A model generated the notes under the pieces. It had not been told where the DNA came from and did not search any database. It was given only the letters and a program-made list of their open reading frames with translations. From Magnetospirillum sp. ME-1 (GTDB taxonomy: Bacteria; Pseudomonadota; Alphaproteobacteria; Rhodospirillales; Magnetospirillaceae), in the NCBI RefSeq assembly GCF_002105535.1, contig NZ_CP015848.1:1054907-1118906 (forward strand): a stretch of DNA of 64,000 nt. The letters run 5' to 3'. Of this stretch, positions 26,477 to 47,673 are shown in pieces; position 1 is the stretch's first letter, and every line of letters starts with the position of its first letter. The position numbers were made by a program, and so were the translations under genes.

Positions 26477-26597
26477 CGATTCTGTTGAAAAACCCGCTGG
26501 TTGGGGCGGGGTGAGTTGGCCAGATGAATGACGCTGAAGTGAAGACGAACGCCCCCCCGATCAAATCGCTGGTGCTGGCTGCGGCATCGGGATGAGC
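26477..26597 (+). repeat. left 121-bp inverted end of the IS1182-like element
   Basis: Exact reverse complement of 27766-27886, including a run of seven C/G. It includes the true 3' coding end of the transposase. Confidence 0.9.
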
Positions 26598-27760
26598 TTT
26601 GCGAGTTTCCTGAGGTTCTGGGCGGTGGCGGCGAGGAGGAATTCGTCCTTGGCCCCGCACGGCCCCCGCAACCGTAATCGATCAAGTTTGAGGATGCGTT
26701 TGAGGTGAGCGAACAGCATCTCGACCTTCTTCCGCAGGCAGCGTGATTCGGCATAGGCCTCAGTCTTGGCGATGTCGCGAGCCAGATCGCGGGCCCCCTC
26801 ATGGACGCTGCGGGGCACGTAGCGTGAGGGCATGTTTGGGCAACAACGGGGTTTCATCGGGCAAGCGTCACAGTCGCGTTTGCTGGCTCGGTACTTCATC
26901 GTATTGGCCTTCGTCACCCCGGAGCGCGGCGTCGTGAACGAGCGATGGAACTTTCGGAGTTCCTTTCCGGCCGGGCAGGTGTAGGTATCGCTTTCCCGGT
27001 CATAGGCGAAGTCGGCCCGCGAGAAGGTCCCGTCTTTGCGGTCGGACCTGTCGAAGACGGGGATATGCGGCTCGATTCCCCGGTCATGCACCAGCCATTG
27101 GAGCGTTTCCGCCGAGCCGTAGGCCGTGTCGGCGGCCAAGCGTTCCGGGTAGAGATCAAACCGTTCGTCGGCCCGCTCGATCATGGTCTTGGCCGCCGAC
27201 ACCTCGGCCTGCCGCACCGCCGTCGAGGCCTCGACATCGACGATGACCGCATGGTCGAGATCAATCAGGTAGTTGGTGGAGTAGGCAAAGAAGGCTTGCC
27301 CTCCATGGGCGGCGGTCCAGCGCGCCGCCGGGTCCGCCGGTGAGACAAACTTCGGCGTCACCTCACTGGCGGCACCGAAAGCGGCATCGTCGAGCACAGA
27401 AAGATATTCATCAATGGCGCGGCTGGTCGCTTCGGGCGGCAGCCCTCGTGATCCTTCGACACCCTTCTGTCGGCTGGCGTCGGCCTTGATCAAGCTGGCA
27501 TCGACCGCGAAAGCCTCGCCGCCAACCAGTCCCTCCTCCATGCAGCGCTGGACGCTTTGCTCGAAGAGATGACGCAACAGATCGCTGTCGCGGAAACGTC
27601 CGTGGCGGTTCTTCGAGAAGGTCGAATGGTCGGGCACCTGTCCTTCAAGGCCGAGCCGACAGAACCAACGATACGCCAGGTTGAGATGGACCTCCTCGCA
27701 CAGCCGCCGCTCTGACCGAATGCCCTGGCAATAGCCGACGATCAACATCCGGACCATCAA
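26561..27760 (-). CDS. IS1182-family transposase, apparently lacking its N-terminus
   Basis: An open frame of 399 codons, first ATG codon at 27757. It begins MVRMLIVGYCQGIRSERRLC and includes the DDE core (EAFAVDASLIKADAS, LAADTAYGSAETLQW) and the C-terminal DUF772/DDE_Tnp region with a Cys cluster (CDACPMKPRCC). Relatives, as I remember them, have about 50-60 more residues before DPELMVRM (HLLRRID...GRPSIDPEL). Here the sequence upstream of EPEL is the inverted repeat, so the N-terminal domain is lost. The gene is probably inactive. Confidence 0.85.
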   Translation of the reverse strand: MMVRMLIVGYCQGIRSERRLCEEVHLNLAYRWFCRLGLEGQVPDHSTFSKNRHGRFRDSDLLRHLFEQSVQRCMEEGLVGGEAFAVDASLIKADASRQKGVEGSRGLPPEATSRAIDEYLSVLDDAAFGAASEVTPKFVSPADPAARWTAAHGGQAFFAYSTNYLIDLDHAVIVDVEASTAVRQAEVSAAKTMIERADERFDLYPERLAADTAYGSAETLQWLVHDRGIEPHIPVFDRSDRKDGTFSRADFAYDRESDTYTCPAGKELRKFHRSFTTPRSGVTKANTMKYRASKRDCDACPMKPRCCPNMPSRYVPRSVHEGARDLARDIAKTEAYAESRCLRKKVEMLFAHLKRILKLDRLRLRGPCGAKDEFLLAATAQNLRKLAKLIPMPQPAPAI

Positions 27761-27765
27761 TTCTG

Positions 27766-27886
27766 GCTCATCCCGATGCCGCAGCCAGCACCAGCGATTT
27801 GATCGGGGGGGCGTTCGTCTTCACTTCAGCGTCATTCATCTGGCCAACTCACCCCGCCCCAACCAGCGGGTTTTTCAACAGAATCG
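27766..27886 (+). repeat. right 121-bp inverted end of the IS1182-like element
   Basis: Exact reverse complement of 26477-26597. It lies immediately upstream of the defence-like cluster and gives that cluster's first long reading frame a false N-terminal extension (to 27799). Confidence 0.9.
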
Positions 27887-28080
27887 GCCGGAAGGCGACG
27901 GTCAGCTACGGAAAACGGGGCAACCCACTCGTGACATATTCTCAACGCCTACGTGACGTAAAAGTTGCCAGAGCATGTCAGCATGGTCGAAGATGGGTTG
28001 CTGCGCGAAGATGCCGAGTCGTTCGAGGCACTGATGTACAGATACAGCGGAGCCGGCAAACCACGCGGCAAAGGGATGAT

Positions 28081-28974
28081 GTGGGGGAAACGGTGTCTAC
28101 CTATTTTACGGATCGTGAATACGGAACACGGCCCCAAACAATCGATGTCATCGATGAGCGCTTATGGGCTGGCCTCTACAGCTTGATCCAGACGGGAATT
28201 GGCAACGGCTCATTTGGTCTGCGCTTTCCCAAACAGTGCCCCGACGGAAACGGTCCGTGTGGATGTGACGAGCAGGCCTTCCACCAGGTGCTAAGCGCCG
28301 AGGTGCCGTGGATCGAATGGCCGCTTTCTCCAAACGAAGTGCCCGACACGCCGGTGATTTTCGATTTGCTCGAGTTTTGTGCCAGCGCCGTGGGTGAGCC
28401 GATTCAGGGCGCTTATCATTCCTACTACCGTCACCATCACTTGAGTTGGGATCGAGACGCCGGCCTTGCGCGATTTGTGGCGAACGTGAACCTCCTGCTT
28501 CGCCGAAACGCTGTCGCCTATGAGCTAACAGGGACCGGACAGGCCCGCCGCCTTCTTCCGCAGGCGATCGCCAATACGATTGGCTGGGCCTTGTTCCACA
28601 CCGGCGACGCGGAGACCGACAGGCTACTTGAAGCAGCACGACAGCGGATTCTCTCGCCAAAGCCCGACGATCGCCGCGATGCGCTGGAAAAGCTGTGGGA
28701 TGCGTTTGAGCGGCTGAAAACACTGGAGCCGGGGTCCGACAAGCGCGTGCAGGCTGATGCACTGCTTGATCGTGTCGCCGCGCCGGGTTCCGGTTTTCGC
28801 CAAGCGCTCGGGCGCGAAGCCGCTGAACTGACCAAAATCGGGAATAGCTTTCGCATTCGTCACTCTGAGACGACGCAGGAAGCGCTGAGCTCTCTCGATC
28901 AGGTCGACTACCTTTTCACCCGCATGTTCGCATTTGTGCGCGTGATCCTGAAGGGAACAAGCCGTGGCGGGTGA
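28081..28974 (+). CDS. AbiJ/HEPN-like abortive infection protein
   Basis: About 297 aa. The N-terminal domain begins STYFTDREYGTRPQTIDVID then ERLWAGLYSLIQTGIG, which resembles the AbiJ N-terminal domain class (probably NTD4). The C-terminal half (LTKIGNSFRIRHSETTQ then LDQVDYLFTRMFAFVRVIL) is a HEPN-like helical domain with R-I-R-H. AbiJ proteins stop phage growth, probably through HEPN RNase action. The start is a GTG at 28081 (AAAGGG upstream) or 28093. The open frame back to 27799 is IS sequence. It overlaps the next gene by 11 bases. Confidence 0.65.
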   Translation: MGETVSTYFTDREYGTRPQTIDVIDERLWAGLYSLIQTGIGNGSFGLRFPKQCPDGNGPCGCDEQAFHQVLSAEVPWIEWPLSPNEVPDTPVIFDLLEFCASAVGEPIQGAYHSYYRHHHLSWDRDAGLARFVANVNLLLRRNAVAYELTGTGQARRLLPQAIANTIGWALFHTGDAETDRLLEAARQRILSPKPDDRRDALEKLWDAFERLKTLEPGSDKRVQADALLDRVAAPGSGFRQALGREAAELTKIGNSFRIRHSETTQEALSSLDQVDYLFTRMFAFVRVILKGTSRGG

Positions 28975-30286
28975 CCTCTATGGGCTCGTCGCTGGCCTTC
29001 TTCAGGGGATGACCCACGCCCAGCTCAGCGAGGAGCCGCAGCGGGTCGCAGGGCTGGGCGTGCCTCACGAGGAGGGCTTGTCAAAACGGCAGCGTATCGA
29101 ACAGGCGCTGGCGAACCTGAGACAGGAACAATTGGCGCAGATTGCGTTGAAGTTTGGCGCGGATCGTCGCGACATCCCCCTCGATGAAGCGGGGCGAAAG
29201 GTTCTTGAAGCAAACGACCCACCATTGAGCCACATCACACGGCGAGACGTCGCACGCGTCTTCGGAGATGATCTCGCCGGCGAGCGCGGTACGGTGGAAA
29301 TCGTCGGACGCTATTTCGTCCTTTCCACACCGTTTGAAGATTTCCTCGGAAGCCGCGGACAAAGCCTGCGTGACCAAGTCGAACGGCACATGGATCGGAA
29401 TCCGGGTGACTGGTCGGTGGAACAGCTATTCGGTGAAATCGGCGCCTTTGACTGCTCCAACGCCAGGTTCGGCGCATTGCTCGAAGATGCCGTTCATCCA
29501 CTTTCCCGGTCTGGAGACGATCAGACGGGGATGGTCACCGCCCTGAACAAGATTCTCGCACGCGACGGATACGAACTCGTGCAGGAAGGCGAGCTCTCCG
29601 GTCATCCTATCTTTGGCTTCCGGTCTGTCGTGCGTGGTGTCGGCGGTCGACCCAAGAATTTGATCTTTGCCTCGCGAGGACCGAAGCCGGAGATCGGCTT
29701 CGCCGACGCGATCAACAACGACATCGTCATTCTGTCTGGCGAAGAGAGTTGCCTGGTCTACGACCGGCCAATCAACGCGAGCGGTCTTCTGTGGTCGGAA
29801 CTCGTTTCGTGGTGGGGCGAGGTTACACCGGGGGCTGATGCCGCAAAACTCGGAGCTCGCCTCAAGGAATCCCTGGCCTCGGACGCAGAACGCAAGTTTT
29901 TCGCGACCTACTTTAAGGCCTATCGGTCCACCCTCGGCGAGGCGTTGCCCGCGCTCCTGCCGCAGGTCTACCTTCACTATGATCCTGCCGTCGTTAAAAC
30001 CCTGCGCCACCGGCTTCCGCTACCGCGTCAACGCATGGACTTCCTGATGCTGCTTCGCAATCGGCAGCGCATCGTGATCGAGGTCGACGGCAAGCATCAC
30101 TTCTCGGAAAACGACCTTCCGTCATTGAAGGTCTATGCAGACATGGTGTCGGCCGACCGCGAGCTGCGCCTTGCCGGATACGAGGTCTATCGGTTCGGCG
30201 CAAATGAACTGGTCGGTGACGGCGCCGAGGCGAGGATCACGGAGTTCTTCGACAAACTTTTTCGTCTGCATCGCATTCGGGAATAG
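28964..30286 (+). CDS. AbiJ-associated protein with C-terminal REase-like nuclease domain
   Basis: A 440-aa protein coupled by an 11-base overlap to the AbiJ-like gene. Residues about 95-330 resemble the AbiJ N-terminal domain class 3 (VARVFGDDLAGERGTVEIVG; FGALLEDAVHP; DGYELVQEGELSG). The C-terminal 90 residues hold a PD-(D/E)XK/Vsr-like nuclease core: MDFLMLLRNRQRIVIEVDGK, then YADMVSADRELRLAGYEVYR and FGANEL. The D ... E-V-D-G arrangement suggests metal-dependent DNA cleavage. The gene pair looks like a two-part defence module; substrate and trigger are unknown. Confidence 0.65.
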   Translation: MAGDLYGLVAGLLQGMTHAQLSEEPQRVAGLGVPHEEGLSKRQRIEQALANLRQEQLAQIALKFGADRRDIPLDEAGRKVLEANDPPLSHITRRDVARVFGDDLAGERGTVEIVGRYFVLSTPFEDFLGSRGQSLRDQVERHMDRNPGDWSVEQLFGEIGAFDCSNARFGALLEDAVHPLSRSGDDQTGMVTALNKILARDGYELVQEGELSGHPIFGFRSVVRGVGGRPKNLIFASRGPKPEIGFADAINNDIVILSGEESCLVYDRPINASGLLWSELVSWWGEVTPGADAAKLGARLKESLASDAERKFFATYFKAYRSTLGEALPALLPQVYLHYDPAVVKTLRHRLPLPRQRMDFLMLLRNRQRIVIEVDGKHHFSENDLPSLKVYADMVSADRELRLAGYEVYRFGANELVGDGAEARITEFFDKLFRLHRIRE

Positions 30287-30330
30287 ACTTGCTCGCTGAT
30301 GCACCACAATGCAAGGAGATATTTAGGGGG

Positions 30331-31653
30331 GTGCAATTGACAACGACGATATTCTGGTCTTGGCAAAGTGATCGCGACCCGAAGTTGCACCACTATTTTG
30401 TGCGCGACGCGCTGAAGGATGCCTGTAAGCTCATCGCCATCGATCCTGACTATCAGGAAGCGGGGCGACCCGAGGTCGATCACGACACCAAGAATGTCGC
30501 TGGAACCCCGGACATCACGAAGACGATCCTGGAGAAGATCGCCAGAGCGAATGTGTTTGTCGCGGATATGACCCCGGTCGGGGTAACCGATCCTGTAGCG
30601 CTTCAGCCGAACACTGGCGCGGATAAGCGTTCAGAGCCGAAGCATCTGCAAAACCCAAACGTCATGTCCGAACTTGGCTACGCGGAACATGCGCTAACTC
30701 AGAGCCGTATCATCCTGGTGGCGAACGGCGCGCACTATCCCGGCCCCGTGGCGCTCCCCTTTGACTGGCGTCATCGTAGCGGCGCGAAAGTCTATCATTT
30801 GAAAGACGGCGCCACGAAGGAGGAGATCAAAGCGGAGCAGAAACGTTTCGCAGAGGTTTTGAAGAGCTGCATCGCACCCATACTAGCCGAGCAGGCACCG
30901 GCAAAGACACCCCCGTCACCCATTTCCTGGCAACCGTCGGCAAGTAGCGATCCGGCAATCTGGCCGGCGGCAGAGAAGAATCTCGAATTTCGCAATGACT
31001 CCATGGAGGAGGTGACGCGGAGTGTAAGGCTGCGCGAAGGCACACGAATTTTCGTGCGCATCGCACCCAGTGAATGGTCAGAACCTGCGCGCTCTGAACT
31101 GGAGCAACGCATTTCGGGCGTTGGCCTGAACATCCGTGCGCGGGACGGTGATTGGGGCCTCAATGGCGACGGTGCGCTGTCGGTGTGGGGCCGGATCTTC
31201 GGCGAGCGTAACGAGATGGACGTGACGAGCGCGACCCAGTGGTTCAAGACAAATGGCGAACTGTGGGGCGTCAACGCCAACTGCTTTGCCGAAGAAAGCG
31301 GGGGCGGGCTTTGCTTCGCTTGCGGATTGCCGTTCGCGCCGATCGACGATTTCTTGGAGAGGGGTATCGCTGCCATCAGGGCCATGGGCGGCAAAGGGCG
31401 GATCGGGATCAAGCTCGGTGCCAATGACCTGACAGGATCGGTCCTGCCCGATTTCCAGTGTCAGAACAGGCGATTCCCGGCCGTCAGTGCGCAAGCCAGC
31501 GTGCAGGAGGAGCTGGAGACGTGGACACCCGAGGAACGCCGTGCGCTTCTGCTGCGCTTCTGGAACGAACTGATGGACTCTTACGGCCGACCGCACGCCG
31601 GCTCCATGGCTGAGTTCGAACGGGAAGCTTGCCTTTCACCGCTATCGAAATAG
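30331..31653 (+). CDS. TIR-like / nucleotide-binding domain protein in the defence cluster
   Basis: About 440 aa. The N-terminal 170 residues begin TTTIFWSWQSDRDPKLHHYF and contain ILEKIARANVFVADMTPVG and NPNVMSELGYA then SRIILVANG. This is the pattern of bacterial TIR-like/deoxyribosyltransferase-fold domains that bind or cleave NAD-like nucleotides. Residues 230-440 (LREGTRIFVRIAP, SVWGRIFG) are unrecognised and may be the sensor. The start is uncertain: GTG 30331 next to AGGGGG, or TTG 30337 with AAGGAG further upstream. It lies 45 bases after the nuclease-like gene. Confidence 0.6.
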   Translation: MQLTTTIFWSWQSDRDPKLHHYFVRDALKDACKLIAIDPDYQEAGRPEVDHDTKNVAGTPDITKTILEKIARANVFVADMTPVGVTDPVALQPNTGADKRSEPKHLQNPNVMSELGYAEHALTQSRIILVANGAHYPGPVALPFDWRHRSGAKVYHLKDGATKEEIKAEQKRFAEVLKSCIAPILAEQAPAKTPPSPISWQPSASSDPAIWPAAEKNLEFRNDSMEEVTRSVRLREGTRIFVRIAPSEWSEPARSELEQRISGVGLNIRARDGDWGLNGDGALSVWGRIFGERNEMDVTSATQWFKTNGELWGVNANCFAEESGGGLCFACGLPFAPIDDFLERGIAAIRAMGGKGRIGIKLGANDLTGSVLPDFQCQNRRFPAVSAQASVQEELETWTPEERRALLLRFWNELMDSYGRPHAGSMAEFEREACLSPLSK

Positions 31654-31661
31654 GCTGCGGA

Positions 31662-34529
31662 ATGACCCAGAACCACGAAGGGGAGAAACCAAATGTGCTC
31701 GATCCGCGCCAACTGGTGCGTATCGAAGCGGCCCATCGTGGTTTCCTATATCAGCACCTCTATCTCGCGAACTGCCTGCTGCGCGCGGGATCGGCGGGCG
31801 TCGATAAAATCATGGTCGAAGCTGACGAGGACGTAGAACTGCATCGGGAAGCCGACAGCGTCTATGTGCAGGTGAAGACACGCCAGGGACTCATGGAAGC
31901 TGGCGACGTCACAGGCGCGATCGAGCGCTTCGCTGTAATTCGGGCGGAGCACGCCGCCGGGGCACGAACTGGGACGGCGCGCTTCGTTATCGCCTCGAAT
32001 GCGGCCCCGGCGCCGAAGCTCGCTGGAATGCTCGCATCGGCGGATTGGCCGGAGGATGTGGAGGTCCATTGGCCAGGCGGCCCAGCGGTTGCTGACCCGG
32101 CGCTCCCCCAGCCGCCCATCGACGTGAACGCCGCTGCGTCTGCATGCAGCACGTTGGCGGCGAAGCTGCCATTTGCAATGTTGCGGCCCGACACGCTGAC
32201 CTGGAAGCTCGCAGGCGCTACGATGCTGGCAGCCTCGGGCTCACCTCCGCGAAGGGATCATGCGTTCCATCGCGATGAACTACCGGCTCTATTTGAGCAG
32301 TTGGTCGTCCAGATGCAGGACTTTCCTTCGCCGCCGGCCGTCTACAGGGCGCAGATCAACGAGCCACCGTTGTCGACCGGAGGACGGGTCAGGGTGCTTT
32401 CAGGGCTGTCGGGCGCGGGAAAGACTGCCTGGGTCGCTGAAGCCGCGACACATTTGGGGACACCAGCCGTGTACCTCGATGTTGGCGAGATGCCCGGACC
32501 GGCGCTGGCATCCGCAGTCGCGCGGGAAGTCGCCGCAAAGCTCTTCGGCCGCAGTCACGGTGTCCTGGGCGAAATTCTCCTGCCGGGTGCGTCGGGCATG
32601 GAGACGCTTGGCGCGTTGAACATCAAGCTCGGTCAGGACGGGCTGAGTGTCGATGTCGTGATCGACAATGCCCATCGCCTGACACCGGCGGACCTGAAAC
32701 CGATTGTCGATTACGCGCAGAACGTCCGCTTTCTTCTGCTGTGCCAGCCTGGCATCGTGACACAGGAGATCGCGGCACTCCTCGGCGTCGAGCATGAAAC
32801 GCTGGGTGGTTGGGACGAGGACACCATTGCGGCGGTGGTCGCCGAGGCCGGCTGTGTGGCCGACTATGCGGATTGCGAGCATCTGTCGCGTCTTACCGGC
32901 GGTCTGCCCTACTATGTGTTGAATGCAGCGACCGTCGCGAAGCGAGAATACGATGGGCGGATCGCAGCCATCTGCGTGGACGTCGAAGCGCAGACGAATA
33001 TTGTCGCAACCGCGCAGCAGGTGATCCTTAAGCGCGCCTTCGACACGATGCCCGAACCAATGAAGGAGGTAGTAGCCGCACTCAGCCTCGCCGATGTCCC
33101 CCTCTCGCGAGACGAAGCCAGCGCATACCTTCAGAAAGCCTGCAAGCTCACGCGCCAGAGCGCCATCAGCTCGCTACGGCAGCTTCCGGATAGCGGAGCG
33201 GTCGAGCTCTTCAGCAATGCCGGGATCAAGGTCCACGACGCGATGCGGCTACTCGGTCGCGCATACATCGCCGGTTGCGGCGCGGACCATGAACGCGAAA
33301 GCCGGAAGCTCCTCTCAGCCACCATCATCGAGTCGATCCAAAAGGATTGGAGCATTGCGAAGCTTGCTCTGCTGGTGAGGCTGTTCGGCCAACTCGGTCA
33401 GGCAAAAATCTTGGTTGAGTTCGCGACCGACGAGTTGTTCCACGAAATGGGCGTTTGGCGCGAGATCGAGCCCTTTCTGATCGCGATCTCCGAGGATGCG
33501 GAGGAAGATGCCGAGACGCGCCTATGGGCTCTCGACGGGCTGGTGTTCAACGATCTGCGCGAAGGCGATGTCGAGCGCGGGCTGGAGCGTATCGACGCGA
33601 TGCGCGCGTTGCTGGACAACAACGAGCTCGGGCCAGATGAGTGGTTGGCCTGGGCAATGAAGCGCATGCTGGCGGTGTCTGGCAACGACGATGCCCAGGG
33701 CGTTATGGATATGCTTGCCGAGGTCGAGGAGCGTCTTCCGGAAAGCGACCAGCATCATCGCATCTTCCGCTACAACCGAGCCCTGGCAATGTTCAAGCTA
33801 GGGGCCTACGATCTCACGCTTCAGGAAACGGAACGGCTTGGGCAAGAGTATTACGACCTCCTGGGCCTATCGCCTGAGCAGGTCATTGGCAGAAACCCGC
33901 CAGCCATCCGCCCGCTGCTGCCCAAGGGGCGAGATAACAGAGATGACCTGAAACATCTCGCTGACACGTTGGACCTCCACGCACAGGCACTACAGCGATC
34001 CGGCGGATCATCACCGTTCGCTCGCATTCACGCGATGAAGTTCTACGAACTTGCCCACGCCCCCCAGTCTATCATACGGGTGGGCCAGGATCTCGTGGAC
34101 GACTTCTGCGTCCACAATGATTTTGAAGGAGCGCGGGACGTCATCGAGAAAATTCTTCTGCCGACCGTCCAGGCATTGAGCCTAGTTTCCTGGGTGGTGC
34201 CGGTTCGCAGCCAATATGCTGTTGTCCTCGCTTATTTGGGGAGGTTCAATGCCGCCGAAAACGAGATGCAGCGGCTCACCCCGTATGAGGCGGGGCTTAG
34301 CCCCGCTGGAAAGGGCGAGTTGCAAGATCAGCGTCGCCTCATTGCAAGCCTTCGACGGTCTGGCCCTCCACCGCAGAGAGAGGTCGTCATTCCTGCTGCA
34401 GTGCACGAGCTTCTCGCAGCCCGCAATGGATCGGCGGCGCATTCACAACCGCGCCGTTCTAAGATCGGCCGGAACGAGCGGTGCCCGTGCCAATCAGGCC
34501 GGAAATACAAACATTGTCATGGTCGATGA
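31662..34529 (+). CDS. nuclease-STAND NTPase-repeat-SEC-C protein (Avs/Cap4-like effector)
   Basis: About 955 aa. Residues about 22-130 are a Cap4/DUF4297-like nuclease: RGFLYQHLYLANCLL, KIMVEADEDVELHREAD, VYVQVKTRQG (E ... E-D-V ... Q-x-K). A P-loop NTPase of STAND type follows: SGLSGAGKTAW (about 247-257), VDVVIDNAHRL (about 328-338). Then come a long helical repeat region (about 480-900) and a C-terminal SEC-C zinc knuckle RNERCPCQSGRKYKHCHG. Nuclease-STAND-repeat is the layout of antiviral Avs proteins, whose repeats sense phage proteins. The ATG at 31662 is used; GTG 31695 has the better ribosome site (GGGGAG). Confidence 0.75.
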   Translation: MTQNHEGEKPNVLDPRQLVRIEAAHRGFLYQHLYLANCLLRAGSAGVDKIMVEADEDVELHREADSVYVQVKTRQGLMEAGDVTGAIERFAVIRAEHAAGARTGTARFVIASNAAPAPKLAGMLASADWPEDVEVHWPGGPAVADPALPQPPIDVNAAASACSTLAAKLPFAMLRPDTLTWKLAGATMLAASGSPPRRDHAFHRDELPALFEQLVVQMQDFPSPPAVYRAQINEPPLSTGGRVRVLSGLSGAGKTAWVAEAATHLGTPAVYLDVGEMPGPALASAVAREVAAKLFGRSHGVLGEILLPGASGMETLGALNIKLGQDGLSVDVVIDNAHRLTPADLKPIVDYAQNVRFLLLCQPGIVTQEIAALLGVEHETLGGWDEDTIAAVVAEAGCVADYADCEHLSRLTGGLPYYVLNAATVAKREYDGRIAAICVDVEAQTNIVATAQQVILKRAFDTMPEPMKEVVAALSLADVPLSRDEASAYLQKACKLTRQSAISSLRQLPDSGAVELFSNAGIKVHDAMRLLGRAYIAGCGADHERESRKLLSATIIESIQKDWSIAKLALLVRLFGQLGQAKILVEFATDELFHEMGVWREIEPFLIAISEDAEEDAETRLWALDGLVFNDLREGDVERGLERIDAMRALLDNNELGPDEWLAWAMKRMLAVSGNDDAQGVMDMLAEVEERLPESDQHHRIFRYNRALAMFKLGAYDLTLQETERLGQEYYDLLGLSPEQVIGRNPPAIRPLLPKGRDNRDDLKHLADTLDLHAQALQRSGGSSPFARIHAMKFYELAHAPQSIIRVGQDLVDDFCVHNDFEGARDVIEKILLPTVQALSLVSWVVPVRSQYAVVLAYLGRFNAAENEMQRLTPYEAGLSPAGKGELQDQRRLIASLRRSGPPPQREVVIPAAVHELLAARNGSAAHSQPRRSKIGRNERCPCQSGRKYKHCHGR

Positions 34530-34587
34530 ATGGCTGCCGACACCAATCACACCAACCTCGCTTTGAGATTGAAAAGATTAGCCCATC

Positions 34588-36621
34588 GTGAAAAAAATAG
34601 GATGCATCGCGTCGGGGGCCGGCTTGCAGCAGATCGAAGTCAAAGTTGAAAATGACCATATCCAGCGGATCACGACGGCACGGCCATTACTGGCAATCTC
34701 GGAACTGATCTGGAACGCCTATGATGCAGACGCTACCGAAGTGCGCGTTCAGCTCGAGGAAGGGCAGCTCACCCAGCTTGGCACCATCCGGGTAATCGAC
34801 AATGGCACTGGCATCCCCCTCGTTACCGTGGAGGCGTTGTTTCAGAAACTAGGCGGTTCCTGGAAGAAACTGGCGACGAAGACCAGCCGCGGGCGCCCCA
34901 TCCATGGGGAAAAAGGGCAGGGTCGATTTAAGGCGTTCGCCTTGGGCGAGACCGTTGCCTGGACCTCGAGCAATGGCGGTCAGAAATTCACGATCTTCGG
35001 GCGAAAAACCGATCTTAAGCGCTTCCAGCTGAGCGAGCCCATCATCGCGACCTCCAGCCAGGGATGCATGGTCGAGATCCGGGACGTGGTGAATGATTTC
35101 GAAATTTGGGCCAGCAACGGTTTTGCCGACCGCGTCCGGGACGTTTTCGCGCTCCAGCTCTATGACGATCCGAACTTCCGCATCGTTTATGACGGCGTCG
35201 AGGTCGATGCACGCGAAGCCATCGAGGCAGTCACCCCTTATCCGATCAGCGTAAGCCAGCCGGGCGGCGACACTTATGAGGCGACACTCGAGATCGTTGA
35301 ATGGAAAAAGCCTGTCGATCGCAGGCTCATGCTTTGTCTGCCAGGACGGTTTAGCTTCTACGAGATGGCGCCGGGCATACAGGCGCGGGGATTCGAGTTC
35401 ACCGCCTATTTGACCGCAGAGCATTTCCAGGCTCTTGCCGACGACAATACCGAAGGGCTGGTTGAGCTGGACGTCGGGTCCAACCTGCTCATCGACGCGG
35501 CCAAGGCACGACTGCGCGAACATTTCAGGAGCAGGGAGGCCGAGCGCTCCAGGGACAAGATCCAGGAGTGGGTCGAGAACAAGATTTACCCCTATGAGGG
35601 CGCAGCGGCGGATCCGATCGAGGTCAATGAGCGGCAACTCTTTGACGTGGTCGCGTTAAATCTAGCCGATTACAGTGCAGAATTCGAAAAGTCGCCGCCC
35701 AAGCAAAAGAAGCTCGTTCTCCAACTGATCAAGGCAGCGATCGAGACAGGCGCCGGCAACCTGTTGTCCATCCTGGAACAGGTGATCGATCTGCCTAAGG
35801 CGCGGCAGGACGAACTGGCTGATTTGCTGCGCAAGACATCGCTGACTGCGGTGATCAACGCAGCAAAGGCCGTCACGGACCGACTGGAGTTTCTGCGGGC
35901 GCTGCAGCTTCTGGTGTTCGCCCCCCAGTCAAAGCGGCAGCTTCTCGAACGATCGCAGTTGCACCGCATTATTGCGCAGGAGACCTGGGTCTTCGGTGAA
36001 CAGTATAATCTAATGAACGACGACGAGGATCTGACATCGGTCCTGCGGAGTCATCTCGGTCTGCTCGGTGACGACCGCGCGGATCCTGCCCCGTCCGCGC
36101 CTGTCTTGGACGCCGATGGCAAGGCCGCAATCGTCGATCTGATGCTGTCCTGCCGGGTACCCACCCCTACAGATGACGAGCGCAAGCATCTGGTCGTCGA
36201 GTTGAAGCGCCCGTCCCAGCCGTTGAACGAGGATGTGCTGGGGCAGATCAAGAAGTACGCAAAGACCGTCGCGCTCGATGAGCGGTTCAAGCACAGCAAG
36301 GTTGAGTGGGATTTCGTCGCAGTATCGAACAGGTTCACGTCGGATGCCGAGCTAGAGGCCCGGCAAGCCGGAAAGCCGCGCGGACTGATCCTGGAACTGG
36401 AGGATCCGATCAGGGTACGCGTCTGGGCTAAGACCTGGGGCGAAATCATCCAAGAGGCCGAGGGCCGACTTACCTTCTACAAGCGCCGCCTGGAATATCA
36501 GGCGAACGACGATGAGGCGCTTAGGTATCTCCGCGCCATCGATGCGGCTTATCTGAGCGACGAGGTCAAAGCCCGCATTGCCCAGCTGGAGGTGGCTGGC
36601 GACGCGCCCGTCGAGGCATAG
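34588..36621 (+). CDS. GHKL (Hsp90/MORC-like) ATPase fused to PD-(D/E)XK-like domain
   Basis: A 677-aa protein starting at GTG. ATPase motifs: LLAISELIWNAYDADATEV (about 32-51; E, N and D), VIDNGTGIP, and HGEKGQGRFKAFALGETVAW, as in MORC-type GHKL ATPases. A helical linker follows. At about 505-560 is IVDLMLSCRVP ... KHLVVELKRPSQPLNEDVLG, giving D ... E-L-K of a restriction-like nuclease. Similar GHKL-nuclease chains occur in prokaryotic defence islands. It lies 58 bases after the STAND gene and is the last of the run of five. Confidence 0.75.
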   Translation: MKKIGCIASGAGLQQIEVKVENDHIQRITTARPLLAISELIWNAYDADATEVRVQLEEGQLTQLGTIRVIDNGTGIPLVTVEALFQKLGGSWKKLATKTSRGRPIHGEKGQGRFKAFALGETVAWTSSNGGQKFTIFGRKTDLKRFQLSEPIIATSSQGCMVEIRDVVNDFEIWASNGFADRVRDVFALQLYDDPNFRIVYDGVEVDAREAIEAVTPYPISVSQPGGDTYEATLEIVEWKKPVDRRLMLCLPGRFSFYEMAPGIQARGFEFTAYLTAEHFQALADDNTEGLVELDVGSNLLIDAAKARLREHFRSREAERSRDKIQEWVENKIYPYEGAAADPIEVNERQLFDVVALNLADYSAEFEKSPPKQKKLVLQLIKAAIETGAGNLLSILEQVIDLPKARQDELADLLRKTSLTAVINAAKAVTDRLEFLRALQLLVFAPQSKRQLLERSQLHRIIAQETWVFGEQYNLMNDDEDLTSVLRSHLGLLGDDRADPAPSAPVLDADGKAAIVDLMLSCRVPTPTDDERKHLVVELKRPSQPLNEDVLGQIKKYAKTVALDERFKHSKVEWDFVAVSNRFTSDAELEARQAGKPRGLILELEDPIRVRVWAKTWGEIIQEAEGRLTFYKRRLEYQANDDEALRYLRAIDAAYLSDEVKARIAQLEVAGDAPVEA

Positions 36622-41415: not shown

Positions 41416-41895
41416 ATGGCTGATCAAAAGGTATCTTTTGCCGCCCGCATCGTGGCTTCGTACTTGGGTAACCACGAGATCTCCATCACCGATCTCCCCG
41501 AGCTCATCAAGGCTACCTACGCAGCCTTGGCCGGTACCGATGCTCCGCCCCCAGTCGATGCGGATCGTCCCATCCCGGCCGTGCCGATCCGGAAGTCCAT
41601 CACGGCTGATGCCATCACCTGCCTGGAATGTGGGAAGCGGCAGAAGATGCTGCGCCGCCATTTATCGACCTCCCATACCTTGTCGGTCGATGAATACCGA
41701 GCCAAATGGTCTCTGCCTGCTGATTACCCTATGACTGCCCGCAACTACGCTCAAAAGCGCTCGGAGATGGCCATCAAGATTGGCCTTGGCAGGAAACCCA
41801 AGGCTGCTGCGGCAGAGGCGGTCGCGAATACGGTGGAAGAGCAGAAGCCACTGCACAGCTATCCTGCATCGAGATGGTCCAAGCCAACGGTCTGA
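41416..41895 (+). CDS. MucR/Ros-family zinc-finger transcriptional regulator
   Basis: A 159-aa protein. The finger CLECGKRQKMLRRHLSTSH (C-x2-C-x9-H-x4-H) and the flanks SVDEYRAKWSLPADYPM and NYAQKRSEMA are the Ros/MucR signature. MucR proteins are H-NS-like silencers of AT-rich DNA in alphaproteobacteria. AAGGAGG sits 8 bases before the ATG at 41416; the open frame extends to 41362. Carried in an AT-rich accessory module, it could silence that module. Confidence 0.9.
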   Translation: MADQKVSFAARIVASYLGNHEISITDLPELIKATYAALAGTDAPPPVDADRPIPAVPIRKSITADAITCLECGKRQKMLRRHLSTSHTLSVDEYRAKWSLPADYPMTARNYAQKRSEMAIKIGLGRKPKAAAAEAVANTVEEQKPLHSYPASRWSKPTV

Positions 41896-42261
41896 TTACC
41901 CAACGATGCTCAAGTCCATCTGAACGCCGCGTACCAGCACCTCGGGGGCAACAGAGCCACGCTTGCCTGGCACCAGCTTGACCAGGCCGTATTGGCTCAT
42001 GGTTTTGAGGGTTCTGGAGAGATTGCTGGCCTTACGGCCGCTCATTACCTCCAACTCGGCCAGCGATGCCGGGTGTTGTTCATCTATGATCCGCAACAGC
42101 CTGCGATTTGGTTCCGACAACACCTTCGCCAACGACTCGAGCGATGTGAACCAAATCTTCGGTTCATCAGGCTGGCGCCGACGTTCACCACGAGCAATCT
42201 GCAAGGCGCGCTCACGAAGCTCATTGTGGGTGGCGATGCCGACTTTGGTCTTTTCAGCCAT
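41896..42261 (-). CDS. tumA: TumA-like winged-helix antitoxin (HVO_A0114-type)
   Basis: A 121-aa protein. IWFTSLESLAKVLSEPNRRL and LAELEVMSGRKASNLSRTLK are the winged HTH typical of the antitoxin paired with TumE/DUF6516. It overlaps the end of the toxin gene by 8 bases and follows it in the same operon. The protein should repress the operon through the palindrome at the toxin start. Confidence 0.75.
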   Translation of the reverse strand: MAEKTKVGIATHNELRERALQIARGERRRQPDEPKIWFTSLESLAKVLSEPNRRLLRIIDEQHPASLAELEVMSGRKASNLSRTLKTMSQYGLVKLVPGKRGSVAPEVLVRGVQMDLSIVG

Positions 42262-42631
42262 CGTGTTGCTCCTTCAGGATGCGCTCGATCTCATCAAAGA
42301 AATCGGCAATCAGCTTCTCGGCAGTCACAAACGAGTAGGGCCGACCCTCGTCGGTTTCGTCGCGGTGCCAATGGTCGAAGGCGGTCTGGCGTTCGACAAA
42401 CTTGCCGCCACGATGCGCAACGCCATGGGCATTGTCGTATCCCATCAACCGGCGGCCATCACGGGAATGGAAGGTCAGAGAATACGAAACGCCGTGGGGC
42501 TTCTCGGCCGTAGCTTCAATCGCCTTGACCTTGAATCGGGCGACATAGCCGTCATCGTAGATGATCTCTTCACCGTCAAGATCCAGCAGATATGAGAGGG
42601 TCTGATCAGCATGTGGCATGCCTGCATTCAT
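42254..42631 (-). CDS. tumE: TumE-family (DUF6516) toxin
   Basis: A 125-aa protein. SYSLTFHSRDGRRLMGYDNA, then GRPYSFVTAEKLIADFFDEI, is the TumE/DUF6516 pattern (y-r-l-x-G-x-R-l-v-g-Y-D-N ... F-x-s-x-e-x-L-x-x-D-F). The gene order, toxin first and then a winged-helix antitoxin, is as in known tumAE pairs. The start is ATG 42631 inside a palindrome; ATG 42619 is possible. Confidence 0.8.
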   Translation of the reverse strand: MNAGMPHADQTLSYLLDLDGEEIIYDDGYVARFKVKAIEATAEKPHGVSYSLTFHSRDGRRLMGYDNAHGVAHRGGKFVERQTAFDHWHRDETDEGRPYSFVTAEKLIADFFDEIERILKEQHDG

Positions 42632-42647
42632 ATCAGTTAGTGATATG
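42629..42647. promoter_or_regulatory. palindromic operator at the tumE start
   Basis: CATATCA-GTTAG-TGATATG is a perfect 7+7 inverted repeat covering the start codon of tumE, so a bound TumA dimer could repress the operon. The repeat is seen directly; the binding is inferred. Confidence 0.6.
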
Positions 42648-42752
42648 GGTTGGCAAGTTCAAGGCTGAGAGGGAGTGACAATGGAAGGCCCATTTGGCGA
42701 TAGGGCGTTTATGCTAACTCATTGAAAAGTTAGCTATAGAAGCGTAGTTCAG

Positions 42753-44207
42753 CTACTTATCGGATTTCATTTCTGAAGTCATGTGGCGAAGGCGCTCCCG
42801 TCGTTCTCGTTCCTGCCGACGTGCTCGTACACCCAGCGCGTGGTTGTATGTCTTGTCCAGCATGGCAATGCTGGTGCCTGCCCAGGTCGCGATTACGCCA
42901 GGATTCAGATCGCTCGTTTCAATTTCTTCTGTGATGGTTGTGTGGCGGATGCTTGTTAGGTCGAAATCATGGCCGTACACATTGTGCGTCAGGTTCGCCG
43001 AATCTAAAAGGCTATCAAAGCTTTTGGCGAATGAGCCAATCGCACTGCCATCCCTGTGCATCCATAAGGGGTCATTGGCAGTGGGCTTTCTGCCAAACTG
43101 GGCCTCGTAATACGCGGGCAACGTCTTCAGCAGGATCGTCGATATCTCCTGACGCATGTGATCGATTGGTTCCACCGTGCGCGGCTTGACCAGTGACTTC
43201 ACAGCGTTGACGTGGAGCTTCACATAAATTTCCTCACCATCAGGGCCGACGTCGGGGAGGAGGGAGGAAAATTTCAATTGGTATCCCTCGGCCACACGTA
43301 AACCGTATGCCCGGAGGGTAAGGCAGCACCACCAGCAAAGTTGGCGATGGCGCCGATTATCTCCCACCAGCTTTGGAGGGTTAAGCCAGCTGGGAATAAC
43401 CTCCATCAAATGCATCCAGTCAGCCTGGGTGAAGTGTGGAGTAGGGCTGGATGCTGATGAAGGCGTGTCCGTGGTCGTGGGGGCATGGTCGGGGATCGAT
43501 ATTACATGTCGCTGCCTACGAGCAAATTTGAATACCGCCCGCAGATAGGACCATTCTTTGCTCTTTGTCGTGCCCGCAGGAATCGATTTTTCCTTGGCGG
43601 TTATCCGTCGAACAAATGGCTCGCCATTTCGCAACGACTCTATGGCATCGATTTGGGCTCCTTGGCCACTGACCCAATAGGTGTCTCGCCAGCGTTGCCA
43701 GACAGCCAGATCGACCGTATCGATCTCATCAATTGGCTTCTTCTGGAACAGATCGTATCGGGCGACATACCGCGTGATAAAACTGCGGTGATGCTCATAT
43801 TTTGTCCAACTGACCTGCCCGCGGCCTTGCAACTCCAGCAAGTCGTCAAGGTAATCCTCGGCGGCCTCGGCCAGGGTTGGTGTCCGGCGCGAGTTCAGGC
43901 GTTTGCCTTTTCCAACCTGCTCGCGATAGCGATAGAGGATGCGCTTGCCAAATTCGATGATCTCTTCAGGCGGACCGTTTCGCTTGACCATTTCGAAATC
44001 GAATTCCCTACCTGCAGTCGCGAGGTGCATAGGGCTATATCGGAATTCGGCGGCGACCAGTCCCTCTTTACGCGGCTGGCCTAAGATCTGGAGGCGAAAG
44101 TAGAACCGCCCCTTGGAGCGCGACGACGGGCGCTGGAAGAGGATGAGTTGGCCGGTTTCGTCGTGCCATTCAGTTGCATAAGCGGGCATTGGGGCGGGCT
44201 CGGTCAT
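42753..44207 (-). CDS. tyrosine-type integrase next to the tRNA-Phe attachment site
   Basis: A 484-aa protein from the ATG at 44207 (MTEPAPMPAYATEW). Catalytic boxes: RAYGLRVAEGYQLKF, DLTSIRHTTITEEIE, WAGTSIAMLDKTYNHAL with Tyr. The open frame runs on to 44531 but crosses the tRNA-Phe fragment. It is the outermost gene of the satellite-like module and lies 160 bases from the attachment fragment, as expected for an integrase. Confidence 0.9.
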   Translation of the reverse strand: MTEPAPMPAYATEWHDETGQLILFQRPSSRSKGRFYFRLQILGQPRKEGLVAAEFRYSPMHLATAGREFDFEMVKRNGPPEEIIEFGKRILYRYREQVGKGKRLNSRRTPTLAEAAEDYLDDLLELQGRGQVSWTKYEHHRSFITRYVARYDLFQKKPIDEIDTVDLAVWQRWRDTYWVSGQGAQIDAIESLRNGEPFVRRITAKEKSIPAGTTKSKEWSYLRAVFKFARRQRHVISIPDHAPTTTDTPSSASSPTPHFTQADWMHLMEVIPSWLNPPKLVGDNRRHRQLCWWCCLTLRAYGLRVAEGYQLKFSSLLPDVGPDGEEIYVKLHVNAVKSLVKPRTVEPIDHMRQEISTILLKTLPAYYEAQFGRKPTANDPLWMHRDGSAIGSFAKSFDSLLDSANLTHNVYGHDFDLTSIRHTTITEEIETSDLNPGVIATWAGTSIAMLDKTYNHALGVRARRQERERRERLRHMTSEMKSDK

Positions 44208-44369
44208 GGTAGGTGGGGGCAACTTGCCCCAAACTTGCCCCAAAATCTTAATCGCAGTGTCCGTGACTCGCAAGTTTTTGAGAACAAAGAGAAAATGCAA
44301 GCCGACGGCATCAAAAGCAGTTTGGGGCAAGTTGTTATATTTCAATGTGTTAGCTTGCAGAGGCGTCTG

Positions 44370-44417
44370 CTGAAAATCGCAGTGTCGGTGGTTCGATTCC
44401 GCCCCTGGGCACCATTT
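44370..44417 (+). repeat. tRNA-Phe 3' fragment, attachment core (junction of two elements)
   Basis: CTGAAAATCGCAG (anticodon arm with GAA), GGTGGTTCGATTCC (T-arm) and CCTGGGC-ACCA match the 3' 45 nt of an alphaproteobacterial tRNA-Phe; the 5' half is absent. The last 20 bases (44398-44417) recur at 47618-47637. No intact tRNA-Phe is visible in the window. Confidence 0.8.
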
Positions 44418-47617: not shown

Positions 47618-47637
47618 TCCGCCCCTGGGCACCATTT
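47618..47637 (+). repeat. tRNA-Phe attachment core, right copy
   Basis: TCCGCCCCTGGGCACCATTT is identical to 44398-44417 and represents the last bases of the tRNA-Phe gene plus flank. It ends the small element and is followed by the terminator expected after a tRNA gene. Confidence 0.8.
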
Positions 47638-47673
47638 AAGCCCCCGGAGCCAGACGGCTTTCGGGGGCTTTCC
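47638..47673 (+). terminator. Rho-independent terminator, probably of the original tRNA-Phe gene
   Basis: AAGCCCCCG / CGGGGGCTT stem with T-rich tail (TTTCC), immediately after the attachment core. Confidence 0.8.

What the first reader, a model, noticed from the sequence alone, without database searches (positions are those of the whole stretch)
28081..36621. Five-gene candidate compound antiphage island
Five co-directional genes, with gaps or overlaps from -11 to 58 bases, each pair a sensing or ATPase module with a probable nuclease, RNase or NAD-active domain: AbiJ/HEPN, AbiJ-REase, TIR-like, nuclease-STAND-SEC-C, GHKL-REase. Single components resemble known defence families, but I do not know this five-gene order as a named system. 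The tight spacing suggests common transcription. It could be one layered system or three adjacent ones (28.1-30.3, 30.3-34.5, 34.6-36.6).
Basis: partly seen in the sequence, partly recalled or inferred. Interest (0 to 1): 0.85.

Follow-up and report, generated by a model that had tools for sequence, protein, structure and literature searches.

The report
Stacked independent anti-phage gene modules
Five neighbouring genes that look like one elaborate bacterial anti-virus system are better read as a row of separately mobile defence units (one two-gene unit and three single genes) stacked head to tail, and the start of the original row seems to have been lost.

Summary
The idea of one compound system is not supported.

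Related loci split the row at gene ends. g1-g2 (AbiJ_NTD4; AbiJ_NTD3-REase) recurs as a pair in three other loci. g4 (Cap4-like nuclease-STAND-TPR-SEC-C) lacks g1, g2, g5 and a full-length g3 in 25 of 26 fetched loci. g3 (TIR-like) and g5 (GHKL-REase) also occur apart. In 366 other alphaproteobacterial genomes the five proteins gave 19 genome hits; only one genome held two (g1+g2, adjacent). g1-g4 in this order was found once more, in a Magnetospirillum metagenome assembly; g5 was found with none of them.

Two further points. First, between those two g1-g4 copies the C-terminal part of g3 has been exchanged (fourfold sites 35/98 identical, against 741/965 elsewhere), suggesting a fixed TIR effector with a swappable sensor. 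Second, in two relatives g1-g2 sits 14 bases behind an AbiE toxin-antitoxin pair with a conserved operator; the window keeps a 3' scrap of abiEii. Such pairs head other cargo elsewhere (Hachiman-like, SIR2) or none.

Verdict: an additive defence island of known kinds of parts; exchangeable cargo behind AbiE is worth following.

The parts
26561..27760 (-). DDE transposase, left neighbour of the row
   Evidence: Pfam DUF772, DDE_Tnp_1_6; 27077-27769 is 98.8% identical to a copy in genome G009
27982..28080 (+). truncated, degenerate 3' remnant of an abiEii toxin gene, head of the related arrays
   Evidence: DNA similarity to L012 and L070 begins at 27981/27982, inside their abiEii genes; intact AbiEii there by Pfam, 4.7e-37 and 9.9e-37; no AbiEii relative of L070 found in the host genome at E 1e-5
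28093..28974 (+). g1: AbiJ_NTD4 protein, 293 aa, probable HEPN RNase C-terminus
28964..30286 (+). g2: AbiJ_NTD3 fused to a DUF559-like REase-fold nuclease, 440 aa
30337..31653 (+). g3: TIR-like N-terminus plus uncharacterised C-terminal part, 438 aa
30810..31590 (+). tract of g3 (C-terminal part) exchanged between this island and that of L012
   Evidence: fourfold-site identity 35/98 against 741/965 outside, 0 of 100 permutations as strong; 32/93 against 63/85 within g3, 0 of 100
31662..34529 (+). g4: Cap4-like nuclease - STAND ATPase - TPR - SEC-C protein, 955 aa
34588..36621 (+). g5: GHKL ATPase with C-terminal PD-(D/E)xK nuclease, 677 aa

Best explanation
This is a defence island of four independently mobile modules stacked in one direction: [g1-g2], g3, g4 and g5. 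Each is a self-contained sensor plus effector, so protection is expected to be additive, not cooperative between all five.

Likely action of each part (inferred from domains and motifs). g1 and g2: the AbiJ N-terminal domains sense infection and release a HEPN RNase (g1) and a REase-fold DNase (g2). g3: the C-terminal part recognises a phage-linked trigger and switches on a TIR enzyme that consumes or converts NAD. g4: the TPR region binds a phage protein, the STAND ATPase assembles, and the N-terminal Cap4-type nuclease cuts DNA. g5: the GHKL ATPase clamps DNA and licenses its own nuclease.

The row, or at least g1-g2, grew behind an AbiE toxin-antitoxin head (operator, DUF6088 antitoxin, AbiEii), which has been lost here except for a 3' scrap.

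Shown: gene content, invariant motifs, module boundaries, separate occurrence, exchange of the g3 C-terminal part, and the remnant. Inferred: phage defence itself, triggers, chemistry, common transcription, and that the loss of the head is the later event.
For: Module boundaries in DNA: L012 (Magnetospirillum MAG; G033 contig C28 has the same length of 87,049, so the two count as one) matches 27981-34529, i.e. g1-g4 without g5. L070 (genome G220) matches 27982-30300 and L038 (Blastomonas plasmid) 28069-30305, i.e. g1-g2 only. L013, L043 and L030 (the last in two pieces) match g4 only, from 31685, 31668 and 31662 to 34529, 34525 and 34529.

Separate occurrence: of 26 g4 loci (L012-L037; several fragmentary or cut by contig ends) only L012 holds g1, g2 and a full-length g3; L023 holds a partial g3-like stretch 3.6 kb away; none holds g5. 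Class sample of 366 other genomes at E 1e-10: g1 in 6, g2 in 2, g3 in 4, g4 in 3, g5 in 4, some of them partial; only G220 has two, g1+g2, adjacent. A recount over all 136 fetched loci at E 1e-5 finds two or more of the five, outside the window's own genome, only in L012/G033, G220, L038 and L023.

On plasmids each was seen without the other four: g1 in L040-L042; g2 in L039, L081-L084; g3 in L044, L088, L089; g4 in L043, L085, L086; g5 in L045, L087, L090.

Invariant motifs. g3 exchange. AbiE head.
Against: No phage assay exists, so defence is inferred. g1-g4 are shared in order with L012 at 87.6% DNA identity, which could reflect some benefit of keeping them together. The spacing (-11, 50, 8, 58) fits one transcript. 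The class sample is sparse (18 genomes with a hit), so rare functional pairings could be missed; fetched flanks are mostly 3-12 kb or less. g3 and g4 are adjacent in both g1-g4 islands known here. An annotated AbiJ-NTD4 protein lies about 8 kb from the g5 relative on its plasmid, at the edge of L045, though it was too cut to compare. No structure model could be obtained.
Confidence: 0.82

Rival explanations
1. Three systems: g1-g2, g3-g4 and g5. Here the TIR protein g3 and the STAND nuclease g4 would work together.
For: g3 and g4 are 8 bases apart here and adjacent in L012 too. L023 has a partial g3-like stretch 3.6 kb from g4.
Against: 25 of 26 fetched g4 loci lack a full-length g3. g3 relatives occur without g4 in the fetched stretches of S. 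fredii (67% identical), Sphingomonas, Ruegeria and others. g4 carries its own nuclease and g3 its own TIR.
Confidence: 0.14
2. One five-gene compound system with shared regulation and joint action.
For: Same strand, small gaps, all five defence-like.
Against: g5 was found in none of the other fetched loci that hold any of g1-g4. Boundaries of similarity fall between modules. In L012 an unrelated ORF without a Pfam match follows g4 at the place of g5.
Confidence: 0.04
3. The genes are not phage defence but other stress or plasmid-maintenance functions such as toxin-antitoxin, RM accessory or anti-plasmid activity.
For: Several copies sit on plasmids beside transfer genes (g5 in L045; g4 in L085). 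One g5 relative overlaps a type ISP restriction-modification gene.
Against: Neighbours in several loci are annotated defence-type genes: DUF1837 plus helicase (Hachiman by recall), SIR2, AbiE, Lit. g1 matches PADLOC candidate PDC-S32. The architectures are described from abortive infection and RM systems (PMC3710099, PMC2292703, passages).
Confidence: 0.1

Closest known systems
AbiJ-family proteins with AbiJ-NTD4 / AbiJ-NTD3 domains (PMC3710099, passages read)
   Same: g1 has AbiJ_NTD4 at the N-terminus and a conserved RHxE motif near the C-terminus; g2 has AbiJ-NTD3 fused to a REase-fold nuclease, a fusion that paper names with DUF2726 as the nuclease.
   Different: The tight g1-g2 pair is not mentioned in the passages seen; the g2 nuclease matches DUF559 (sub-threshold), and DUF2726 was not among its Pfam matches.
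paraMORC3 GHKL ATPase with C-terminal REase (PMC2292703, passages read)
   Same: g5 has the GHKL motifs plus a C-terminal D...ExK nuclease, and stands apart from an RM operon here, as the paper reports for a subset in proteobacteria.
   Different: Assignment to paraMORC3 itself was not tested; one g5 relative overlaps an RM gene.
VcSduA, Shedu with GHKL ATPase (PMC12137116, passages read)
   Same: GHKL ATPase plus PD-(D/E)xK nuclease in one chain, shown there to defend against phages.
   Different: The Shedu domain DUF4263 was not among Pfam matches of g5 or its 6 relatives.
Avs / STAND anti-phage ATPases (recalled; search listings only)
   Same: N-terminal nuclease, STAND ATPase, C-terminal repeats in one protein.
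   Different: g4 ends in a SEC-C zinc motif and gives no PADLOC Avs hit; membership not shown.
CAP12/PCTIR TIR effectors (Pfam PF10137)
   Same: 3 of 5 g3 members match weakly; invariant NPNV-x2-ELGYA with a candidate catalytic Glu (role recalled).
   Different: No cyclase was seen beside it; the C-terminal part is of unknown fold and exchanged between islands.
AbiE type IV toxin-antitoxin (PMC3985639, passages read, some from the abstract)
   Same: Head of the related arrays: antitoxin-AbiEii pair with an inverted repeat over the promoter region.
   Different: Lost in this window; in the paper AbiE is a two-gene operon, here it leads further genes.

Membership tests
AbiJ family, NTD4 type (g1) | AbiJ_NTD4 domain above Pfam cut-off | tested here: met
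   35.4 bits against cut-off 34
AbiJ family, NTD4 type (g1) | C-terminal HEPN RNase domain | tested here: inconclusive
   No HEPN profile match; IGN-x3-IRH-x-E invariant in 10 of 10 sequences
AbiJ-NTD3 - REase (g2) | AbiJ_NTD3 domain | tested here: met
   145.7 bits against 32.5; 10 of 10 members
AbiJ-NTD3 - REase (g2) | C-terminal REase-fold nuclease | tested here: inconclusive
   DUF559 in 10 of 10 at E up to 0.1, best 0.0019; window protein 16.4 bits, below the cut-off of 20.6; invariant RMDF and E-x-D-G-x2-H
TIR NADase (g3) | TIR fold with catalytic Glu | tested here: inconclusive
   PF10137 in 3 of 5 members, best 2.3e-4, window protein only 0.11; invariant Glu in NPNV-x2-ELG; fold not modelled
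Avs-like STAND nuclease (g4) | Nuclease - P-loop ATPase - repeat sensor in one chain | tested here: met
   Through relatives: Cap4_nuclease 10 of 16, AAA_22 16 of 16, TPR_6 7 of 16 at E up to 0.1; invariant Walker A and Q-x-K
Avs-like STAND nuclease (g4) | Match to a named Avs subtype | tested here: not met
   PADLOC scan gave no Avs model; matches to the SEC-C tail and a weak LmuA nuclease match
paraMORC3-REase (g5) | GHKL motifs and C-terminal nuclease with E..D-ExK | tested here: met
   HATPase_c_3 7 of 7; invariant N43, D71, G73, D517, E538, K540; HSDR_N_2 in 6 of 7, window protein 0.13
paraMORC3-REase (g5) | Belongs to the paraMORC3 subfamily rather than another GHKL family | not tested
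   no tree or subfamily profile was made
Shedu (g5) | DUF4263 nuclease domain | tested here: not met
   not among Pfam matches of 7 members at E up to 0.1
BbrUII/HgiDII type II restriction enzyme (g5) | NCBIfam equivalog cut-off | tested here: not met
   56.5 bits against 550; the match covers residues 37-209, the ATPase part
One compound five-gene system | Conserved co-occurrence of all five | tested here: not met
   0 of 26 g4 loci, 0 of 366 genomes, none of the fetched loci outside the window's genome
Any of these as phage defence | Reduced phage plating | not testable with these tools
   needs experiment

The most novel reading that the evidence does not exclude
An AbiE head cassette serves as a controlled loading site for exchangeable defence cargo. 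It consists of a conserved inverted-repeat operator, the DUF6088 antitoxin and the AbiEii toxin. The antitoxin would repress not only the toxin but the whole row behind it, so that loss of the antitoxin on infection derepresses every appended module at once. The island in this window would be a decapitated example, running from some other promoter. Within such rows single modules also swap their sensor parts, as seen in g3.
Probability: 0.35. Interest if true: 0.7.

Novelty: new member of a known kind. Interest (0 to 1): 0.4.

Why it matters
It corrects a tempting five-gene system into a stack of known kinds of defence modules, and gives module borders that tell an experimenter what to clone. 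It offers two testable leads: the C-terminal part of g3 as an exchangeable sensor on a fixed TIR effector, and AbiE pairs with a conserved operator as heads of otherwise unrelated cargo. The second would bear on how defence islands are regulated and assembled.

Tried and rejected
A 20-base imperfect direct repeat at 27982-28001 and 34518-34537 coincides with both ends of the similarity to L012. I considered an insertion site, but the left copy is coding sequence of the abiEii end and the right copy is the SEC-C end of g4 (CHGR-stop), so I dropped it.

Promoter and terminator scans found fewer sites than shuffles or about as many (1 against 2.4; 8 against 8.3): uninformative.

Searches of solved structures gave SEC-C matches for g4 (plus one chance-level row) and GHKL matches for g5, and nothing convincing for g1, g2 and g3.

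Viral contigs: one relative each for g3, g5 and g4, a partial one for g1, none for g2.

Mosaic scan: of nine comparisons, two gave no permutation as strong: L012 g3, and L070 g1-g2 (tract 28455-29674, 92/195 against 113/152). Two were borderline (L043 g4, 1 of 40; L040 g1, 1 of 100). Five showed nothing (L038 g1-g2 25 of 100, L012 g1-g2 13 of 100, L012 g4 22 of 40, L039 g2 74 of 100, L045 g5 29 of 40).

The first g4 search in relatives was swamped by SEC-C tails: 55 of 60 genomes, the window's own included, counted as matches; besides the window's own only G033 matched along the protein. Later g4 searches left the tail out.

AbiE head pattern: eight of 417 plasmid records with an AbiEii match were opened for this: the best one, and seven picked from the 60 listed rows before their neighbours were seen. 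Five have a co-directional gene within 60 bases behind abiEii (DUF1837 plus helicase, DUF4238, SIR2, UvrD helicase twice) and three have none. Whether the UvrD and DUF4238 genes are defence is unknown.
Full report
The observation. The window lies in a single-contig 4.55-Mb genome. Five ORFs on the + strand between 28081 and 36621 are intact. Comparison with relatives moves three starts: g1 to 28093, g3 to TTG 30337, because the relative in L012 has a stop codon just before that TTG, and g4 to ATG 31662. Gaps are then -11, 50, 8 and 58 bases.

Domains. Pfam gives AbiJ_NTD4 for g1, AbiJ_NTD3 for g2, SEC-C and weak AAA for g4, and HATPase_c_3 for g5. PADLOC gives PDC-S32 for g1. Scanning relatives one by one, at E up to 0.1, adds CAP12/PCTIR TIR for g3 (3 of 5 members). 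For g4 it adds Cap4_nuclease (10 of 16), AAA_22 (16 of 16) and TPR_6 (7 of 16). It adds DUF559 for g2 (10 of 10, weak) and HSDR_N_2 for g5 (6 of 7). Cap4, TPR_6, TIR and HSDR_N_2 do not reach that limit in the window's own proteins. Invariant residues include g1 R256-H257-x-E259; g2 D359, E373, D375, H379; g3 FWSWQ and NPNV-x2-ELGYA; g4 D55, Q70-x-K72, the Walker A G-x-S-G-x-G-K-T, D335-N-x-H and the SEC-C cysteines; g5 N43, D71-x-G, G107-x2-G-x-G, D517 and E538-x-K540.

Is it one system? A scan of one genome per species with g4 returned 26 loci. Only L012, a Magnetospirillum metagenome assembly, also holds g1, g2 and g3; none holds g5; L023 has a partial g3-like stretch. In 366 other alphaproteobacterial genomes the five proteins gave 6, 2, 4, 3 and 4 genomes, some by partial matches; only G220 had two of them, g1 and g2, side by side. 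Plasmid stretches show each in other company: g1-g2 on a Blastomonas plasmid, g2 behind DUF1837 and helicase genes, g1 without the others, g4, g3, g5 between transfer genes or overlapping a type ISP enzyme. DNA alignments place the borders at 27981/27982, about 30300, 31662-31685 and 34525-34529. A recount over all 136 fetched loci finds two or more of the five, outside the window's genome, only in L012/G033, G220, L038 and L023. I conclude that the row is a stack of modules: g1-g2, g3, g4, g5.

Exchange inside g3. Between the window and L012, fourfold-degenerate sites match at 741 of 965 positions outside, but only 35 of 98 inside 30810-31590, the C-terminal part of g3. The segment was found by scanning; no permutation of 100 gave one as strong. 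Selection on protein does not by itself raise synonymous change, so replacement by recombination is the simplest reading. Among 69 plasmid records with g3 relatives only 15 cover 80% of the protein. Of the 45 other rows listed, 42 end between residues 143 and 209 (many rows are near copies from one genus). So the TIR part is found with other partners: in the E. coli plasmid protein opened, it lies at the C-terminal end. This fits a TIR effector combined with exchangeable parts. L070 shows a similar, weaker tract across the end of g1 and the NTD3 part of g2; seven of nine comparisons showed no tract beyond all permutations.

The lost head. In L012 and L070, g1 begins 14 bases behind an AbiEii toxin gene preceded by a DUF6088/AbiEi antitoxin gene. 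In the window only a truncated 3' piece of abiEii remains, at 27982-28080, and the host genome gave no relative of the L070 AbiEii at E 1e-5. The Blastomonas g1-g2 pair (L038) has no AbiE before it. Ten heads (L012, L070 and the eight plasmid loci opened) share about 50 bases upstream of the antitoxin, with an inverted repeat CTGTCAGAAA-N10-TTTCTGACAG (exact in 5 of the 10) over promoter-like hexamers, judged by eye. Except for L012 their DNA similarity to L070 ends before the abiEii stop codon. Cargo differs: DUF1837 plus helicase (Hachiman by recall), DUF4238, SIR2, UvrD helicase, or none (5 with, 3 without, of 8 opened), and g1-g2 in L012 and L070. AbiE antitoxin represses its own promoter through inverted repeats in the case studied (PMC3985639, passages). 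Whether it also controls the cargo is untested.

What it works like. g1-g2 resemble AbiJ-type abortive infection proteins, g2 being close to a fusion named in 2013 (PMC3710099, passages). g5 resembles paraMORC3-REase, described in 2008 as standalone in some proteobacteria (PMC2292703, passages), and may work like VcSduA (PMC12137116, passages), but without the Shedu domain. g4 looks like a STAND nuclease of Avs type but matches no named Avs model. g3 looks like a TIR effector. All mechanisms are inferred.

Literature limits. I saw listings, and passages of five papers. No title or opening of an abstract listed (9 of 9 and 10 of 26 papers) describes AbiE heads with exchangeable cargo, but those papers were not read through, so I make no claim of absence from print.

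Noticed in passing
window 44370-44417 and 47618-47638: Two copies of a tRNA-Phe 3' end flank a 3.2-kb stretch with a DUF6538 integrase gene; beyond 47618 the chromosome matches genus relative G016. The left chromosomal flank of G016 with its tRNA-Phe matches about 1.07 Mb away in inverted orientation, suggesting a large rearrangement at this site.
   Followed up: partly
window 41417-44417: 93% identical to the end of an apparent island of about 58 kb between tRNA-Phe 3' ends in genome G009; includes part of the region of a Ros/MucR regulator.
   Followed up: partly
L125, L130-L136, L012, L070: DUF6088-AbiEii pairs with a conserved inverted-repeat operator and varying downstream genes.
   Followed up: partly
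L014-L016: A DUF4238 gene (Pfam checked in L014) is the nearest sizeable gene upstream of g4 in three sphingomonad loci; annotated DUF4238 genes also follow AbiEii in L131 and lie next to a SIR2 gene in L038.
   Followed up: no
L017-L021, L023, L030, L035: A gene of one family (Pfam AAA/SMC-like in L017) lies upstream of g4 in eight loci, mostly Sphingopyxis, and overlaps the start of g4 in L030.
   Followed up: no
L027 / L094: g4 of Humitalea rosea (L027) and the g4 of a viral contig (L094) have the same identity and start, so a prophage may carry it.
   Followed up: no
L089, L126: g3 relatives overlap the end of an AbiEii gene by 4 bases in Ruegeria and Phaeobacter plasmids.
   Followed up: no
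L045 17975-17986: The g5 relative of Alisedimentitalea lies about 8 kb from an annotated AbiJ-NTD4 protein on the same plasmid, cut by the edge of the stretch.
   Followed up: no
window 42254-42631: TumE toxin-like gene near the island.
   Followed up: no
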